A stretch of DNA of 37,492 nt, from the IMG/VR virus record IMGVR_UViG_3300032046_000093, positions 1 through 37,492 of that record. One strand, given 5' to 3'. Positions 13,267 through 34,643 of this stretch are shown here, in pieces; position 1 is the first letter of the stretch, and each line of letters begins with the position of its first letter. The stretch comes from a virus. Below the pieces are notes generated by a model. That model did not search any database. It saw nothing but the letters and a program-made list of their open reading frames with translations, and had not been told where the DNA came from. The position numbers and the translations under genes are program-made.

Positions 13267-13317
13267 TTATACGCCTCTGCTCCAAAAATCGCTCAGAATG
13301 CCTCTCAAACCCTCTAA

Positions 13318-13377
13318 CCCCACCACTTACCCCACCACTTACCCCACCACTTACCCCACCACTTACCCCACCCTTTA
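13318..13377. repeat. 12-bp tandem direct repeats (iteron-like), five units
   Basis: Four perfect units CCCCACCACTTA (13318-13365) and a fifth degenerate unit CCCCACCCTTTA follow one another without gaps. They lie just after the RHH partner of ParA, in the only gap between the par genes and the downstream membrane genes. Arrays of short direct repeats beside ParA/RHH operons often serve as partition site (centromere) or as autorepression operator; here that role is inference. Confidence 0.85.
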
Positions 13378-13423: not shown

Positions 13424-13795
13424 TTACTTTTGCCCTCGTTTTTCCAACTCATTGACGAGGCTATCCACATCCTCCGGCAGCACAATCACCCAATCATATC
13501 GAGGTGACCGGCTAACTCGCCGGTGATCTTCAAAACTGATCTCACCACTCACATACTGGCGAATCACTCTGGCCACCAACAAGTTGACCACACTGGCCGG
13601 GCTGCATTCTTCTGCTTTACTGATGACCTCAATCATCTGTGCTACACGAGGATCAAGTTCAAAAGTAACCCGATGCCGGATCGCCTGTTTGCGCTGCTCT
13701 TGGGTCATCCCACGTCGCTGCTTCCGCCGATTATTGTCTCGCAGGATCGCATCCACTGCCGGATCCACTATGACCTTTTGTCGCTCCGCCATCAC
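13424..13795 (-). CDS. ribbon-helix-helix ParA-partner protein
   Basis: 123 residues from the GTG at 13795, or the ATG directly after it; the start overlaps the ParA stop. After a basic, flexible N-terminus (VDAILRDNNRRKQRRGMTQEQRKQAIR) comes a RHH core: beta strand HRVTFELDP followed by two helices (RVAQMIEVISKAEECSP, ASVVNLLVARVIRQYV). RHH proteins coded directly after ParA act as centromere-binding partners and autorepressors (ParG/omega type). The gene continues about 45 residues beyond the RHH with YDWVIVLPEDVDSLVNELEKRG. Its likely binding sites are the 12-bp repeats downstream. Confidence 0.7.
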   Translation of the reverse strand: MMAERQKVIVDPAVDAILRDNNRRKQRRGMTQEQRKQAIRHRVTFELDPRVAQMIEVISKAEECSPASVVNLLVARVIRQYVSGEISFEDHRRVSRSPRYDWVIVLPEDVDSLVNELEKRGQK

Positions 13796-14574
13796 CGACC
13801 TCCTTTATTGCCGATCTCCTGGCCCAGTCGCACCAACACCTGGCGATATCCGCCCCGCCGCTGGTTCTCGATCACGACCCCACACAATGCCCTGCAGTCA
13901 GGCGCGTACTCCCACAGTGTTTTTCCATAAGCCGGCGCTTCGCGCGCCTTGACGTCGAGCGGGATTGGCGGCCAGGACATCTTGCCGAATTGCTCTACCA
14001 GAATCTGGAGCTGTTCGGCCGATTCCTTAGTCGTGCGCTCCCAGAACGTGGGCAGGATACCCAGGAATGTTCCATATTCCTGACCAAGCTGACTCAACCT
14101 CGCTGCACTCGTCAACACATCCCGCGCGCCCACGGCCGCCAGGTAGTCGAGTGCCACCGGCACCAGGAAGCCATCACACGCCACCAAAGCGCACATCTGA
14201 AAAATGTCTACCCCCGGCGCCACGTCGAGCACCACGACGTCGTAACAATCGTACTGCTTGAGCGCATCCCGCAGCACATACTCCCGGAATGATCGCCCGA
14301 CCAACCGCTCCTGCGCTTCCATACTCGAGTGATCGCCGAGCACTACTTCCAACCGCTCACGGCCAGAACTCCGCACTGCAGGAGCCCGCTCGAACAATAG
14401 CCGGTACAGATCGCCCCGCTTCTCCAGCCCCAGCACATCGGCCACGTTTCCTTGCGCGTCCAGGTCCACGAGCAGCACCTGCGCGCCCGCAATCGCCAGC
14501 CCGTGGGCAATCGTGACGGCGCTGGTCGTTTTTCCGACTCCGCCCTTCTGGTTAATGAGTGCTAACGTATACAC
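13792..14574 (-). CDS. parA: ParA-family partition ATPase
   Basis: 260 residues from a GTG at 14574, chosen for AAGGAGGACGACG directly upstream and because the protein then starts like other ParA proteins (MYTLALINQKGGVGKTT). The frame is open further upstream but reads as low-complexity Arg/Gly sequence. Deviant Walker A KGGVGKTT at about 10-17, Walker A' VLLVDLDAQGN, Walker B DVVVLDVAPGVD. No N-terminal HTH, so it is the small (type Ib-like) form. It would move or position DNA with the RHH partner; in a phage it points to stable maintenance as an extrachromosomal prophage. Confidence 0.88.
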   Translation of the reverse strand: MYTLALINQKGGVGKTTSAVTIAHGLAIAGAQVLLVDLDAQGNVADVLGLEKRGDLYRLLFERAPAVRSSGRERLEVVLGDHSSMEAQERLVGRSFREYVLRDALKQYDCYDVVVLDVAPGVDIFQMCALVACDGFLVPVALDYLAAVGARDVLTSAARLSQLGQEYGTFLGILPTFWERTTKESAEQLQILVEQFGKMSWPPIPLDVKAREAPAYGKTLWEYAPDCRALCGVVIENQRRGGYRQVLVRLGQEIGNKGGR

Positions 14575-14630
14575 CGTCGTCCTCCTTGCTTGAGGCAGGG
14601 GGGCGAGAGCACTCCCCCCTGCCTTCTCTC

Positions 14631-15491
14631 CTACAGCCTTTCCACGTCCGCTGGCGGGACCTGGATCTTCCCGAACTCCACCTCGTGCCTCGCGCACCAT
14701 CCCGGCATCTCTGTATGCTCGCACACCTCGATCCGCTCGACCTGGTACACGTTCGCCACGCGGACCGGATGACCGCCCGAGACCGGGTACCACCAACCCT
14801 GGTGGTCACACTCGGCCGTCAGTGAATCGACGTACTCCCTCTCCACGTAACGGCCCTCGTCGTCCATCGCCAGAATGCCATAGTGTACCCGGTAAAACAC
14901 GAAGGGGTAGAACGCCGCCTTCTGCAACTCCAGCCGCCGCGCCTCCCGCTCTTCCCTGGCCGCCCGCGCCCGCACCTGGGCCTGTTCCTCCGCTTCTGCA
15001 ATTTCCACCCGGCCCTCGAGATCCCAGGGAATCTCTATTGTGCGGAAATCCTCGTCACTCTGGACCCGGTTGAGCGCAGCCACTATCCGCTGAATCCCTG
15101 CCTGCTGTGCCTGCCTGTCCTCCTCTTGAGCAGCGTAGCCATCGTCTACGTCCTTAATCCAAGTGAGGATGGCTTGCAGCACGGCTGCCGTACCATGATG
15201 AAAGTGATTCTGGCTAATGAATTCCCTGGTGCAGCCACGGTACAACAGGACCATACCACGGGGCGTGAACCTGGCATTCAGTCCACTGAGCAGATCAGCC
15301 CCCAGCGCCTCTAGCCACAGACCATGCTGATACTCACTCTGGACCGCTTCGAGGCGTTGCCTCTCCTCATTCACGGCTCTCTCCCGCTGAGCCGTGACCG
15401 CTGCCCACGCCTGCTCCTCGATCTCCACCTGCTGCCGCAGCGCCTCTATCGCCTGCGCGCTAACTTCTGCCGCAGAAACCTGTGTATCCAT
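14631..15491 (-). CDS. hypothetical protein with coiled coil and Cys/His C-terminal region
   Basis: 286 residues. Helical and coiled-coil N-terminus (VSAQAIEALRQQVEIEEQAW..., then EEQAQVRARAAREEREARRLELQ in the middle), then a beta-rich C-terminal part with ECDHQGWWYPVSGGHPVRVANV and EVCEHTEMPGWCARHEVEFG; the Cys/His spacing could bind a metal. Codons 5-9 (VSAAE) come from a TTCTGCSGCAGAA palindrome at 15465-15477. It is the third gene of the operon leading to parA and overlaps its upstream neighbour in TAATG. Family not recognised. Confidence 0.65.
   Translation of the reverse strand: MDTQVSAAEVSAQAIEALRQQVEIEEQAWAAVTAQRERAVNEERQRLEAVQSEYQHGLWLEALGADLLSGLNARFTPRGMVLLYRGCTREFISQNHFHHGTAAVLQAILTWIKDVDDGYAAQEEDRQAQQAGIQRIVAALNRVQSDEDFRTIEIPWDLEGRVEIAEAEEQAQVRARAAREEREARRLELQKAAFYPFVFYRVHYGILAMDDEGRYVEREYVDSLTAECDHQGWWYPVSGGHPVRVANVYQVERIEVCEHTEMPGWCARHEVEFGKIQVPPADVERL
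15463..15479. repeat. palindrome site 4 (core 15465-15477)
   Basis: TTCTGCCGCAGAA flanked by AC and AC, 12 bp inside the start of the 14631-15491 gene, encoding the VSAAE stretch at residues 5-9. Confidence 0.85.
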
Positions 15492-15944: not shown

Positions 15945-15976
15945 TTTTCCGGCTCCTTTCAGGCCACATATACGAC

Positions 15977-16120
15977 AAAAGCCCACAGTGGCATTACCAA
16001 CCCGGAGCCGGAAAGCTCAGCCAGGCGATTTTGCCACTGTGGGCCTTTATCCACAACCAGTATGGAGTTGTCAATGGGTGGCGATAAAAAATCGCCTACT
16101 ATGGAGCTTTCCGGCTTCCA
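15977..16120 (-). ncRNA. structured leader or small RNA with interleaved stems and terminator
   Basis: Transcription from the promoter at 16127-16155 should begin near 16120. Two 13-bp perfect inverted repeats interleave: arm 16104-16116 (GAGCTTTCCGGCT) with 16006-16018, and arm 16032-16044 (TGCCACTGTGGGC) with 15981-15993. In the minus-strand RNA the order is P1, T, P1', T', and T' is followed by UUUU, so T/T' is a terminator-like hairpin. A third hairpin (16080-16085 with 16091-16096) lies between. P1/P1' and T/T' cannot both form without a pseudoknot, as in a terminator/antiterminator switch. The first gene of the par operon starts about 33 nt after the U-run. It could be a regulatory leader or a free small RNA. 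Confidence 0.65.
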
Positions 16121-16126
16121 CTGAAG

Positions 16127-16155
16127 ATTATACCACATCTTTTTCCCCTTGTCAA
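16127..16155 (-). promoter_or_regulatory. consensus sigma70 promoter
   Basis: Perfect TTGACA (16155-16150), 17-bp spacer, perfect TATAAT (16132-16127), on the minus strand, driving the structured leader and the par operon. Palindrome site 5 lies 25 bp upstream. Confidence 0.9.
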
Positions 16156-16178: not shown

Positions 16179-16195
16179 ATTTCTGCCGCAGAAAT
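16179..16195. repeat. palindrome site 5 (core 16181-16193)
   Basis: TTCTGCCGCAGAA flanked by AT and AT, directly after the stop of the Tas-like gene and 25 bp upstream of a consensus promoter. Confidence 0.85.
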
Positions 16196-16902
16196 CACAG
16201 CGGCGGCCACCCGAACTCCTCCGGCCGGTACTCATGTTCATGCCCCAGCCGCTCGTGCGCGTACGGCGCTCGCGTGGGCAAGCCCTCAATTGTGCGCCAG
16301 CGCTCCCACAGATGCGCCAGGAAAATCTTGGCCATCTTGCGCATTGCCGCCCGGTGCCGCCGGATCACCGGCCAGTCCGGCCGGTTGGCGTCGTAATATG
16401 CCCGCGCGCTGTCGTAGATCTGCCGGTACGGGCTGTTCGCCTTCATAAACGATCCAGCGATGAGCAACACCGTCGCCTTCAACCGCTGGTTGTAGTGCAG
16501 GCGCTCTCCGGCCTGTGGATGCTCCCGCTCCCCATCCACCACGCCCATCCCCGCATACCGCCACAGCGCGCTTACCGTGTTGGCCCGCTCAATGTCGATC
16601 GGTGCCAGCAACTTGGCGGCCAGAATCTCTGCTATGCCCCGCAGCGCCAACACCTGCTCGATGATGGGCTCACTCTCGCACAGGTCGTGGATCAGCGCCG
16701 CGATGTCGCCGTCCAGCCTACGTTCCAGCCCCAGAAACGCATCGTAGTAATATGCCAACACCTCGCTCTGTTGGTCACTGCCGCCGCCATCATCGGCCCC
16801 CCGCACAATCGCGTCAATCCGGCTGCCGAACTGAATGCGTGCCTTCTGGATCTGCCGGTCCCGCAAATCCACCAACGCCCTGAGTAACTCTTTCTGCTTC
16901 AT
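16195..16902 (-). CDS. Tas-like Nop/Transposase_20-domain protein (nuclease-less)
   Basis: 235 residues, ATG at 16902 with AGGAGG 8 nt upstream. The N-terminal part (1-80) is helical; residues 84-105 (QVLALRGIAEILAAKLLAPI) are a helix-hairpin-helix of the kind in IS110-type Transposase_20 domains, followed by SALWRYAGMGVVDGE (about 111-125), LHYNQRLKATVLLIAGSFMK, SPYRQIYDSARAYYDANRP, and AMRKMAKIFLAHLWERWR. The RuvC/DEDD catalytic domain of a full IS110 transposase is absent, and no HNH is present. Known biology: Transposase_20 is structurally related to Nop domains, and Tas proteins of TIGR-Tas systems are Nop-domain proteins, some without nuclease. The array directly upstream makes this the better reading than transposase debris. 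It probably binds guide RNA and target DNA without cutting. Co-transcription with the array is likely. Confidence 0.8.
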   Translation of the reverse strand: MKQKELLRALVDLRDRQIQKARIQFGSRIDAIVRGADDGGGSDQQSEVLAYYYDAFLGLERRLDGDIAALIHDLCESEPIIEQVLALRGIAEILAAKLLAPIDIERANTVSALWRYAGMGVVDGEREHPQAGERLHYNQRLKATVLLIAGSFMKANSPYRQIYDSARAYYDANRPDWPVIRRHRAAMRKMAKIFLAHLWERWRTIEGLPTRAPYAHERLGHEHEYRPEEFGWPPL

Positions 16903-16918
16903 TTTCGATTCCTCCTGT

Positions 16919-17325
16919 AACTCGCTCTATGACTTAGGTTTTCTCTCAGTCCCTGGCTCGCTCTCTGTTATTGGTTCTTCTCTATAGTCGAGGCTCGCTT
17001 TCGCCACTTGGTTCTTCTCAGTCGCCTGGGCTCGCTCCGCCGCTCTGGATCTCTCTGCTACCTAGGCTCGCTTAATGTATTAGGGTAACTTCCACCTCAT
17101 GACTCGCTTCCACCTCTTGGTTTCCTTATCAGGATTGGCTCGCTTCCGCACTTAGGTTAACTTCCACTTCCTGGCTCGCTCTGTCGCTTTGGTTCTCTCT
17201 ATAACCCTGGCTCGCTCGTCCAAGTCGGTTCTCTTAATCTCCAAGGCTCACTCCAAGGTGCTGGTTTCCTCTCCAACTCAGGTTCGCTTCTAGGATTCGG
17301 TCATCTCAATCTCACAGGCTCGCTC
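16919..17325 (-). repeat. TIGR-type tandem guide array (alternating 9-nt repeats, 9-nt spacers)
   Basis: On the minus strand two repeat types alternate every 18 nt. Type A is RAGCGAGCC (12 copies, from 17317-17325 to 16919-16927, variants such as AAGCGAACC, GAGTGAGCC, GAGCGAGTT). Type B is RAG..AACC (11 copies: GAGATGACC, GAGGAAACC, AAGAGAACC, AAGTTAACC and others; two carry one extra A). Between them are 22 different 9-nt spacers, for example TGTGAGATT, GAATCCTAG, AGGGTTATA, TAATACATT, CAGGCGACT. The full period is 36 nt. No open reading frame crosses it. The first repeat lies in the last codons of the upstream HExxH gene and the last ends 2 nt before the Shine-Dalgarno of the Tas-like gene. 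This matches published TIGR arrays, which give 36-nt tigRNAs with two 9-nt spacers. Which repeat is 'edge' and which 'loop' cannot be told here. Confidence 0.85.
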
Positions 17326-17650
17326 TCGGTTCATTGTCGGCTTTCCAATCGTACCAATCCTGTAACCCCGGGTTATCCCTCAGTACCCCCATCAACCCGT
17401 TTGCCAGCACATCCATCAGGGACTCGTCATCAGTTTCCTTATCCCGTCCCGCCTGCGTCAGAATCACGTGGAAAACCTCGTGGAGCAATGTCTCATACTG
17501 CTCCTGGTCTGCCAGGTCAGATTCAATCGCAATTTCGCTTCGTGTGTGCCGGACCTCTCCCCACAATCCTTTTCCATCGCTATGTAAACCCTGTACCGGG
17601 ATAATCTGAAAAATGAATGGCCCTATCCTGATTTTCTTCGGCAATACCAT
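17312..17650 (-). CDS. HExxH metallopeptidase-like protein
   Basis: 112 residues from the ATG at 17650 with GGAGGTGG upstream; a longer frame to 17716 has no such site. MVLPKKIRIGPFIFQIIPVQGL, then SEIAIESDLADQEQYETLLHEVFHVILTQAG with HEVFH at about 67-71, the HExxH zinc-binding motif, and DVLANGLMGVLRDNPGL near the end. Short HExxH proteins with 'LLHEvfHvil' are common in phage genomes and resemble ImmA/SprT-type zincins. Substrate unknown. Its last codons carry the first array repeat, so it is probably co-transcribed with the array. Confidence 0.7.
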   Translation of the reverse strand: MVLPKKIRIGPFIFQIIPVQGLHSDGKGLWGEVRHTRSEIAIESDLADQEQYETLLHEVFHVILTQAGRDKETDDESLMDVLANGLMGVLRDNPGLQDWYDWKADNEPRASL

Positions 17651-17925
17651 CAATCCACCTCCAGAAATGGAAATCCGGCCAGCGCTCCCAACAGCAGCGG
17701 CCAGGCCAGCACACACCCCGCCGCGTACAGCGCCAGCCGCACCAGGTTGCCAACCCAGCGCCGGGGCAGTTCATGGTACACCCGCTCCAGCACGTGCAAC
17801 CCGCCCACGATCCGCCCGTACGTGTAGGCCACCCCGATGGCCCACACGAAGACGACGATCAGCTCCGTGCCGGTCAGCAGCCGCACCGTCCCCTCGACCC
17901 TGTCCAGCACCATCCACCAGGTCAC
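17650..17925 (-). CDS. small membrane protein
   Basis: 91 residues from a GTG at 17925 that overlaps the stop of the upstream gene (GTGA). Two hydrophobic segments: GTELIVVFVWAIGVAYTYG and the C-terminal NLVRLALYAAGCVLAWPLLLGALAGF, separated by a basic linker (LERVYHELPRRWVG). The stop overlaps the next start (TGATG). Function unknown. Confidence 0.55.
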   Translation of the reverse strand: MTWWMVLDRVEGTVRLLTGTELIVVFVWAIGVAYTYGRIVGGLHVLERVYHELPRRWVGNLVRLALYAAGCVLAWPLLLGALAGFPFLEVD

Positions 17926-24536: not shown

Positions 24537-25514
24537 TTACAGTGCCCATCTATCCACTGGGCTTGCCCGGCGATGCGCCTCCTCCATGTCCACTTGTGCT
24601 AGCGCCAGGTACCGCTTGACCATCTTCAACGACTTATGTCCCAAGATTGCCTGCAGTGTAAACACATCGCCCTGATTTCTGAGGTAGTTGATGGCAAATG
24701 TGTGCCGAAAGCGATGCGGATGACAATCCTTCACACTTGCCCGCTCACCTAAGCGAGAGGTAAGCTGCCGCAGCGTATCACGGCTGAATCGCCGCCCACG
24801 CTGCGTAGCAAAAAGCGGGTTTCCCTCTACTTCCGCATCTGGCCGCTGAGCCACGTAAAGCCATACTGCCCGCCGCGCCGACTTCCCCAGGTGCACGTAC
24901 CTTTCAACCCCACCTTTAGGACCTGGTGCCCCCGGCCGTTGCACAATCCGTATCTGCCCCATCTCCAGGTCCACATCGCCAATATTCAAGCCACATAGCT
25001 CAGAAGCCCGCATTCCTGTATCAAGAAGCAAAAGAATAATTGCCCGATCCCGCGTCCCCGTAGGCCGCGCTGCCTGGACCTCCTCACCACTGTGTGTCCG
25101 CCAGGCCGCCGTCTTTGCACAGGCGCTAATCAGTGCTACAATATCATCCCGCGAAAATGGGACAATCGCGGGATCAGTGAAACGAGGGGCTTTGATACGC
25201 CTGATGATGTGCTCTACACCCAACTCTTGGTTAGCCCACGTCCATAGCGCGGACAGAGTAGTGTAGACATTGCGCCTACTTTTGTCTGACAGGGGATGAT
25301 CTTCACCGCTGAATCGCATAGGCACATACTTGTGCCGTAACCAGTCCAGAAACGCCGCGATGTCAGGTGTGGTAATTGTCTCGATCTCCTTATCCGCACT
25401 GAGATGCTCTGAGAAGATGCGCAGGTGTTGTCGGTAAGATTCGAGGGTCCTATCCCTTACCCCTTCGGCGGACTTTGATAGGAGAAACCCTTGTATGGCT
25501 GTCGCGAGTTTCAT
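24537..25514 (-). CDS. int: tyrosine recombinase / phage integrase
   Basis: 325 residues from the ATG at 25514, which overlaps the RHH stop (TGATG). N-terminal SAM-like DNA-binding region (1-110: RTLESYRQHLRIFSEHL, RRNVYTTLSALWTWANQEL), then the catalytic domain with Arg169 (DTGMRASELCGL), a Lys in the beta hairpin near 200, His267-x-x-Arg270 (HPHRFRHTF), His293 (ILGHKSLKMV) and the nucleophile Tyr302 (VKRYLALAQ). The full catalytic set is present, so it should be active in site-specific integration. The likely attachment region is the nearby tRNA-like segment. Confidence 0.93.
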   Translation of the reverse strand: MKLATAIQGFLLSKSAEGVRDRTLESYRQHLRIFSEHLSADKEIETITTPDIAAFLDWLRHKYVPMRFSGEDHPLSDKSRRNVYTTLSALWTWANQELGVEHIIRRIKAPRFTDPAIVPFSRDDIVALISACAKTAAWRTHSGEEVQAARPTGTRDRAIILLLLDTGMRASELCGLNIGDVDLEMGQIRIVQRPGAPGPKGGVERYVHLGKSARRAVWLYVAQRPDAEVEGNPLFATQRGRRFSRDTLRQLTSRLGERASVKDCHPHRFRHTFAINYLRNQGDVFTLQAILGHKSLKMVKRYLALAQVDMEEAHRRASPVDRWAL

Positions 25515-25714
25515 CACGCCTCGACTTCTGCGGCAGAAATCTGTGGCTGATACTCTGCCAGACAAGCTTCCCGATAGCGCTGCGCCACTTCTTCACGAAT
25601 GATCTCCGCCATAGCACGCCCAGTCGTTTGCGCTTCCTTGCTGAGCAAACGATAGAGAAACGCCGGGAGATATACCTTGACCTGTTTGCCTAAGACTGTT
25701 TGTTGTTGAGACAT
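25514..25714 (-). CDS. small ribbon-helix-helix protein upstream of integrase
   Basis: 66 residues. KQVKVYLPAFLYRLLSKEAQTTGRAMAEIIREEVAQRYRE fits a RHH fold (beta strand, helix, turn, helix). The C-terminal residues QISAAEV are encoded by palindrome site 7. Translationally coupled to int, it could be an excisionase-type or autorepressor protein; the divergent promoter region directly upstream carries inverted repeats. Confidence 0.6.
   Translation of the reverse strand: MSQQQTVLGKQVKVYLPAFLYRLLSKEAQTTGRAMAEIIREEVAQRYREACLAEYQPQISAAEVEA
25524..25540. repeat. palindrome site 7 (core 25526-25538)
   Basis: TTCTGCGGCAGAA flanked by AC and AT, about 12 bp before the integrase start codon, in the last codons of the RHH gene. 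Confidence 0.85.
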
Positions 25715-34324: not shown

Positions 34325-34643
34325 CCATCACCTCCTGATGCTGATAACACCGCTGGCCCCATTCCTCCACCCCCCGCCGGCAGCGTCCCCCCTCGACCGT
34401 GGCTGCACCACAGAACGGCCGTACCTCCACGAACTCAGCCTTCACGTACAACCCACACCCCTCGATCATCGCCACCGTGATGTGCTCACGCTCCGCCCCC
34501 ACCACGTCGGCCCCCGTCAAATCCCGCGCCGGCAGCGCCATCACGTAAGCCCCCGCCGGCCCGATGAACTTGTAAATGATAGGTTCAGACTCCAACTTCC
34601 AACCTCCAACTTCCAACTTCCAACCTCCAACCTCCAACCTCAA
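34314..34643 (-). CDS. small protein with C-terminal Cys3His motif
   Basis: Up to 109 residues. The first 18 codons (MRLEVGGWKLEVGGWKLE) come from a heptamer repeat and may not be translated; a TTG inside the repeat near 34592 (LESEPIIYKF...) is another possible start. The C-terminal part has CGAATVEGGRCRRGVEEWGQRCYQH, a C-x8-C-x9-C-x2-H pattern of a small zinc-binding module. Overlaps the tail tube start. Confidence 0.5.
   Translation of the reverse strand: MRLEVGGWKLEVGGWKLESEPIIYKFIGPAGAYVMALPARDLTGADVVGAEREHITVAMIEGCGLYVKAEFVEVRPFCGAATVEGGRCRRGVEEWGQRCYQHQEVMDGA
34590..34638 (-). repeat. heptamer tandem repeat (YTCCAAC)x7
   Basis: Seven consecutive [CT]TCCAAC heptamers, encoding the repeated EVGGWKL at the start of 34314-34643 on the minus strand (GTTGGAR). 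The repeat also supplies a GGAG Shine-Dalgarno. Confidence 0.85.

What the first reader, a model, noticed from the sequence alone, without database searches (positions are those of the whole stretch)
16195..17325. A TIGR-Tas-type RNA-guided system with a nuclease-less Tas protein in a temperate phage
Seen in the sequence: a strictly phased 18-nt periodicity, 12 type-A repeats (RAGCGAGCC) alternating with 11 type-B repeats (RAG..AACC) and 22 different 9-nt spacers over 407 bp. It has no ORF and ends 2 nt before the Shine-Dalgarno of a 235-residue Transposase_20/Nop-like protein that lacks RuvC and HNH domains. Established knowledge: TIGR-Tas systems pair a Nop-domain Tas protein with arrays processed to 36-nt tigRNAs carrying two 9-nt spacers; Tas proteins may or may not carry a nuclease, and Nop is related to the IS110 domain. 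Inference: this copy binds DNA without cutting it, so it may repress host or rival-phage genes, or regulate the phage itself. An automatic annotation would call the gene 'IS110 transposase' and leave the array blank.
Basis: partly seen in the sequence, partly recalled or inferred. Interest (0 to 1): 0.97.

Follow-up and report, generated by a model that had tools for sequence, protein, structure and literature searches.

The report
Nuclease-free TIGR-Tas guide system in phage
A bacterial virus, probably of Anaerolineae, carries a small known-type RNA-guided DNA-binding system (TIGR-TasA: a protein without a DNA-cutting domain plus 11 short two-part guides); what such systems bind is still unknown, and comparison with sister phages suggests they store quickly changing guides aimed at something other than the phage itself, perhaps rival phages.

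Summary
On the minus strand, 17325→16919 is a dual-repeat array: 12 edge repeats (RAGCGAGCC), 11 loop repeats (RAGNRAACC), 22 spacers, 36-nt pitch (two units are 37). It lies directly upstream of a 235-aa gene (16902→16195). The protein is a Tas protein, not an IS110 transposase: NCBIfam TIGR_Tas 173.9 bits (cut-off 100) against IS110 24.0 (cut-off 140); its AlphaFold model matches TasH (Z 25.7) and TasR (22.8) above IS621 (15.9) and Nop5 (8.2). It has no nuclease domain, so it is TasA, a published type (Faure et al. 2025, PMC12045711). It is a new member of a known kind, in a probably Anaerolineae-infecting temperate phage. Comparative tests bear on function. A sister phage, syntenic at 68-76% DNA identity, keeps the repeats and a TasA under purifying selection (dN/dS 0.17) but shares no guide. 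270 guides from 33 arrays do not match their own phages above chance, so self-regulation is disfavoured. Two guides match a sister phage while their own phage is changed at that site (p about 0.05 each): leads only. Best explanation: guides retarget a non-cutting DNA binder against other mobile elements, such as related phages. Mycobacteriophages with stem-loop TasA arrays make this testable.

The parts
16919..17325 (-). TIGR dual-repeat array: 12 edge repeats (RAGCGAGCC), 11 loop repeats (RAGNRAACC), 11 two-spacer guides; transcribed 17325 to 16919
   Evidence: same edge/loop cores in more than 30 related arrays
16195..16902 (-). tasA, 235 aa, solo Nop-domain Tas protein without nuclease domain
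   Evidence: NCBIfam NF052498 173.9 bits, cut-off 100; PDB TasH E 1e-17 and TasR E 2e-17; AF2 pLDDT 89.9, TasH Z 25.7
16905..16918 (-). ribosome-binding region of tasA (AGGAGG), 2 nt after the last edge repeat
   Evidence: sequence
17312..17716 (-). upstream ORF in the same operon (weak M78/IrrE-like metallopeptidase similarity); its last codons overlap the first edge repeat
16127..16155 (-). 12/12 extended -10 promoter TTGACA-17-TATAAT just downstream of tasA; starts the next transcript
   Evidence: conserved in the sister phage apart from one base of the -10 (TATCAT)
15945..16126 (-). structured 5' leader with three mutually complementary copies (16116-16104, 16018-16004, 15956-15946), the last overlapping a Shine-Dalgarno
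   Evidence: fold z -6.0; copies change in step in the sister phage
13424..14796 (-). ParA ATPase ORF and a weakly RHH-like ORF, a candidate partition module, in the leader's operon
   Evidence: ParA relative also in the two closest TasA phages
24537..25565 (-). tyrosine integrase (temperate life style)
   Evidence: phrog_1 E 2.5e-49

Best explanation
This is a TIGR-TasA locus. Shown by sequence and predicted structure: the array architecture and the Tas fold without a nuclease. Taken from the characterised relatives, not shown here: the array is transcribed with tasA, cut within edge repeats into about eleven 36-nt tigRNAs, and each tigRNA loads a TasA dimer that unwinds and sharply bends an 18-bp site, spacer A pairing with one strand and spacer B with the other (site = A followed by the reverse complement of B). 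Without a nuclease, the effect must come from occupying and bending the site, blocking transcription, replication or packaging. Inferred: the guides are aimed at other mobile elements, most likely related phages of the same host, and are exchanged quickly, while the phage's own DNA does not match. Confidence: about 0.97 that it is TIGR-TasA, about 0.85 that it is a guided non-cutting binder, about 0.45 that rival elements are the main targets.
For: Membership. Guides are the variable part: sister phage G001 (whole-genome synteny at 68-76% DNA identity) keeps edge and loop repeats and a 76%-identical TasA (dN/dS 0.17) but shares none of the guides. In five mycobacteriophages with tas genes 96-98% identical, only the spacers of conserved stem-loop frames differ much, and whole guides recur in new combinations. 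No self-targeting: 270 guides from 33 arrays gave 32 own-contig sites of 15/18 or better in the true geometry, against 38-54 in three wrong geometries. Spacer GC follows genome GC (r = 0.75, 23 arrays), as expected for targets of similar composition. Leads: G001 guide 2 matches this phage at 11208-11227 (16/18) but only about 12/18 at its own homologous site (21 of 400 shuffles reach 16). BPBiebs31 guide 4 matches Pinto and HermioneGrange at position 222 (17 of 18 pairings, halves overlapping by one base), where BPBiebs31 itself has changed (6 of 120 shuffles).
Against: No confirmed natural target. The two leads have p of about 0.05 each, and cross-phage matching over 38 contigs shows no general excess. 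No window guide matches the sister phage at 15/18 or better. Four more mycobacteriophage arrays added no match of 16/18 or better in the true geometry (that parse cut the BPBiebs31 guide to 8+8 and skipped it). Host chromosomes were hardly tested. TasR gave no phage protection in E. coli (PMC12045711).
Confidence: 0.5

Rival explanations
1. TasA represses chosen host genes (a phage-encoded, CRISPRi-like silencer for lysogeny or takeover).
For: Nuclease-free binder in a temperate phage with an integrase; spacer GC follows phage GC, which host genes would also satisfy.
Against: A silencer of conserved host genes would predict conserved guides, yet the sister phage shares none and mycobacteriophages on one host strain differ in most guides. 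Window guides against the 149-kb Ornatilinea contig gave one 15/18 site, at or below the controls.
Confidence: 0.2
2. The array regulates the phage's own genes or replication.
For: Operon setting beside a structured leader and a Par module. One overlapping 15/18 near-match of guide 9 lies in that leader at 16022.
Against: 270 guides show no excess over control geometries in their own contigs. The guide 9 near-match needs a 2-nt overlap of half-sites, is at chance level, and no guide of the sister phage reaches 14/18 anywhere in that phage's genome in the same register, although the leader is conserved there.
Confidence: 0.12
3. TasA-tigRNA helps DNA transactions of the phage, such as integration or plasmid-like partition, by bending DNA.
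For: Integrase and ParA in the genome; ParA in the two closest TasA phages; the TIGR-Tas authors note TasA-ParB operons and bending.
Against: ParA is absent from the other 48 records tested, and many changing guides are not needed for a fixed site.
Confidence: 0.13
4. It is an IS110-like transposase gene beside an unrelated tandem repeat.
For: Weak Transposase_20 match; PHROG description 'transposase'.
Against: Far below the IS110 cut-off and no N-terminal DEDD domain; the model is closer to TasH/TasR than to IS621; the same array type sits beside tas in dozens of phages.
Confidence: 0.01

Closest known systems
TIGR-TasA with dual-repeat array (FpTIGR type; Faure et al. 2025, PMC12045711)
   Same: Solo Nop protein; alternating edge and loop repeats with 9-nt spacers and 36-nt pitch; array next to tas; phage-borne.
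   Different: Box D is AG rather than UG; the A of box C (CCA) is not fixed; array upstream inside an operon and without a terminator; probable Anaerolineae phage.
TIGR-TasH (Salicola phage CGphi29)
   Same: Closest solved relative (sequence E 1e-17; Z 25.7); nearly the same edge core (AGCGAGCC).
   Different: TasH has an N-terminal HNH domain; this protein starts where TasH residue 65-70 aligns.
TIGR-TasR (PDB 9mty)
   Same: Nop fold, coiled coil and C-terminal domain align (Z 22.8).
   Different: No RuvC domain here.
IS110/IS621 bridge-RNA recombinases
   Same: Shared Nop-like RNA-binding domain (Z 15.9).
   Different: No DEDD/RuvC domain; guides in an array; below the IS110 family cut-off.
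Stem-loop TIGR arrays of mycobacteriophages (BPBiebs31, Pinto and others) and Gordonia phage Morrissey
   Same: Solo Tas protein over the NCBIfam cut-off, array beside tas, two roughly 9-nt spacers per guide.
   Different: Guides sit in hairpins instead of between edge and loop repeats.

Membership tests
TIGR-Tas | Tas protein of the Nop-domain family, distinct from IS110 | tested here: met
   NF052498 173.9 bits over cut-off 100, IS110 model 24.0 under 140; model Z 25.7 TasH, 22.8 TasR, 15.9 IS621, 8.2 Nop5
TIGR-Tas | Array of two alternating 8-12-nt repeats with about 9-nt spacers next to tas | tested here: met
   array ends 2 nt before the tasA Shine-Dalgarno
TIGR-Tas | Box D and box C motifs shared by edge and loop repeats | tested here: met
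   AG...CC in both repeats here; related arrays carry AG/AG or TG/TG pairs, with few exceptions such as L002
TIGR-Tas | Spacers vary while repeats are conserved between relatives | tested here: met
   Sister phage: same repeats, no shared guide
TIGR-Tas | Truncated terminal edge repeats and a terminator after the array (typical, not defining) | tested here: not met
   Last edge degenerates (GAGCGAGTT), but no terminator before tasA; the array is in an operon. The Ornatilinea relative has the terminator
TIGR-Tas | Processing to 36-nt tigRNAs bound by Tas | not testable with these tools
   Needs small-RNA sequencing of a pull-down
TIGR-Tas | Tandem-spacer DNA targeting | not testable with these tools
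   Sequence scans found no significant target
TasA subtype | No nuclease domain fused to the Nop domain | tested here: met
   235 aa, whole chain covered by the Nop part of TasH/TasR; array directly upstream of the start codon
TasH / TasR subtypes | N-terminal HNH or RuvC nuclease | tested here: not met
   Absent
IS110 transposase | N-terminal DEDD/RuvC domain and IS110 family score | tested here: not met
   24.0 bits, cut-off 140; Pfam PF02371 17.7, cut-off 21.3

The most novel reading that the evidence does not exclude
TasA arrays are an RNA-guided sibling-exclusion weapon: guides are copied from conserved sites of closely related phages, the carrier's own copy of the site drifts away (self-immunity by divergence), and whole guides are swapped between phages like cassettes. 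Supported so far by two nominal cases (G001 against this phage; BPBiebs31 against Pinto/HermioneGrange) and by guide shuffling among mycobacteriophages.
Probability: 0.25. Interest if true: 0.85.

Novelty: new member of a known kind. Interest (0 to 1): 0.45.

Why it matters
The natural targets of TIGR systems, and of nuclease-free TasA above all, are an open question in the founding paper. This locus comes with a syntenic sister phage whose guides are all different, a cultured relative (Ornatilinea apprima), and about 74 sequenced mycobacteriophage records with Tas relatives on one laboratory host. Together they turn 'what does TasA bind?' into a direct experiment.

Tried and rejected
Own-phage targets: no excess. 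Alternative guide register (loop to loop) and three wrong geometries served as controls. Chance 15/18 site of guide 9 in the leader (16022): needs overlapping half-sites, dropped. An exact 18/18 match of a duplicated guide of phage L035 to a tail-like gene in L160: about the number expected by chance (a 16-mer gave 5 hits). A guide shared by L023 and L025 found only an unrelated contig. N-padded short BLAST for mycobacteriophage targets found nothing, but had no positive control, so it is inconclusive. Plasmid collection: no relative. A prophage-like Anaerolineae contig with a 66% terminase (L268) carries no match of 15/18 or better to window guides in the true geometry. Codon-phase pattern of near-duplicate guides (L017, L234: two third-position-like changes): too few cases to claim. 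Rfam hits in the window are far below gathering scores. IS110 reading rejected.

Full report
What is there. The window is a complete IMG/VR virus record of 37,492 bp with head, portal, terminase, tail, lysis, primase, methyltransferase and integrase genes, nearly all on the minus strand. The array runs 17325 to 16919 on that strand. Segmentation gives 12 edge repeats RAGCGAGCC, 11 loop repeats RAGNRAACC and 22 different spacers. Two units are 37 nt long. The periodicity is far outside shuffles (0.496 against a maximum of 0.353). The first edge repeat overlaps the last codons of the upstream ORF; the last one ends 2 nt before the Shine-Dalgarno of tasA.

What the protein is. Pfam alone is ambiguous (Transposase_20, 17.7 bits, below cut-off). 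NCBIfam is not: TIGR_Tas_endo 173.9 bits over a cut-off of 100, IS110 24.0 under 140. The only significant PDB sequence matches are TasH (E 1.3e-17) and TasR (E 2e-17). An AlphaFold model from 11 relatives (pLDDT 89.9) matches TasH (TM 0.89; Z 25.7), TasR (0.73; 22.8), IS621 (0.59; 15.9) and, weakly, Nop5/Prp31 (Z about 8). The chain contains only the Nop part, so by the published naming it is TasA, the solo-Nop type. The NCBI name 'endonuclease' would mislead here.

Relatives. Fifty IMG/VR loci were found with one alignment and more with two others. More than 35 of the first set have recognisable 36-nt arrays beside tas, with edge core GCGAGCC and loop ending ACC nearly throughout. Salicola phage CGphi29 (the published TasH) has the same kind of array, and Microcystis phage Mvi-JY20 has one ending in a terminator-like hairpin. 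In bacterial genomes the closest relative is a locus in Ornatilinea apprima P3M-1 (Chloroflexota, Anaerolineae; 53% identity), with an array ending in a terminator. The window terminase has a 66% relative in another genome of the same class. The host is therefore probably an Anaerolineae bacterium (inference).

Sister phage. G001 (IMGVR_UViG_3300033991_000232) is syntenic over the genome at 68-76% DNA identity. Its TasA is 76% identical with dN/dS 0.17. Its array has four parsed guides; none is shared with this phage, although repeats and position are kept.

Tests of targets. Following the published rules (spacer A pairs with one strand, spacer B with the other, 0-2 bp gap), I took A followed by the reverse complement of B as the target. 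This order is my derivation from the reported 8-nt 3' overhangs. I used three wrong geometries as controls. In 270 guides and their own contigs the true geometry gave 32 sites of 15/18 or better, the controls 42, 38 and 54. Own-phage targeting is thus not supported. Against the other contigs there was no general excess either.

Leads for sibling exclusion. G001 guide 2 fits this phage at 11208-11227 with 16/18 (AAATGAACG-GC-CCGCGACTT), while G001's own homologous site fits only about 12/18. Shuffled guides reach 16/18 between the two phages in 21 of 400 trials. Independently, Tas relatives in about 74 mycobacteriophage records (two actinophage Tas proteins tested are over the NCBIfam cut-off) sit behind stem-loop arrays in the phages examined. 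In five of them the stems and boxes are nearly identical while the spacers differ. Guide 4 of BPBiebs31 fits Pinto and HermioneGrange at position 222, a conserved non-coding left-end site present in 164 phage records. There 17 pairings fit, with the half-sites overlapping by one base, whereas BPBiebs31 differs at that site. Six of 120 shuffles reach that score. The overlap is outside the geometry tested for TasR, though stem-loop spacers are reported as 8-12 nt. Four further arrays showed whole guides recurring in new combinations (for example Arcanine combines guides of Parliament, HermioneGrange and BPBiebs31), but no new strong target. These are leads, not findings.

Array evolution. Near-duplicate guides occur within arrays, mostly as whole edge-started A+B units (L035, L026, L017, L031, L234). 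Since both spacers are duplicated together, this supports the A+B unit as the functional guide. Spacer GC follows genome GC (r = 0.75).

Mechanism. By homology: co-transcription with tasA, processing at edge repeats, and loading onto a TasA dimer that unwinds and bends an 18-bp site without cutting. Because the last edge repeat lies 2 nt from the tasA Shine-Dalgarno, TasA binding or processing there could also affect its own translation (speculation). The biological target remains unknown; rival elements are my best guess at about 0.45.

Novelty. It is a new member of a known kind (TIGR-TasA, dual-repeat). The main text of the founding paper does not mention Chloroflexota. The added value is the sister-phage comparison, the negative self-target test and the tractable mycobacteriophage set.

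Noticed in passing
window 15945-16155 (-): Directly after tasA: an ideal extended sigma-70 promoter and a strongly folded leader (z -6.0) with three mutually complementary copies of one motif, the third overlapping a Shine-Dalgarno. In the sister phage all three copies changed in step (GAGACGCGAATCTC / GAGATTCGCGTCTCC / GGAGACGCGAA). This looks like an anti-SD/anti-anti-SD translational switch, though a set of repressor operators is not excluded.
   Followed up: partly
window 13424-14796 (-): ParA ATPase next to a weakly ribbon-helix-helix-like ORF: a candidate partition module in a phage that also has an integrase. A ParA relative occurs in the two closest TasA phages (66% and 54%) but in none of 48 other records tested.
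   Followed up: partly
L252, L254-L257, L281-L284 (upstream of tas): Mycobacteriophages (Fromanvirus) carry four to five stem-loop TIGR units with conserved frames and variable spacers; guides recur in new combinations between phages. The gene is annotated as transposase or hypothetical protein.
   Followed up: partly
L253:2600-3900: Gordonia phage Morrissey has stem-loop TIGR units on both sides of its tas gene, with the same stem sequences reused on the two sides.
   Followed up: no
L035, L026, L017, L031, L234 arrays: Whole guides duplicated within an array, identical or with one or two changes; in L017 and L234 the two changes are 6 and 12 nt apart and would be synonymous in one reading frame.
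   Followed up: partly
window 13317-13372 and 34590-34641: Short perfect or near-perfect tandem repeats (12-mer x4.7 ACCCCACCACTT; 7-mer x7.4 CTCCAAC).
   Followed up: no
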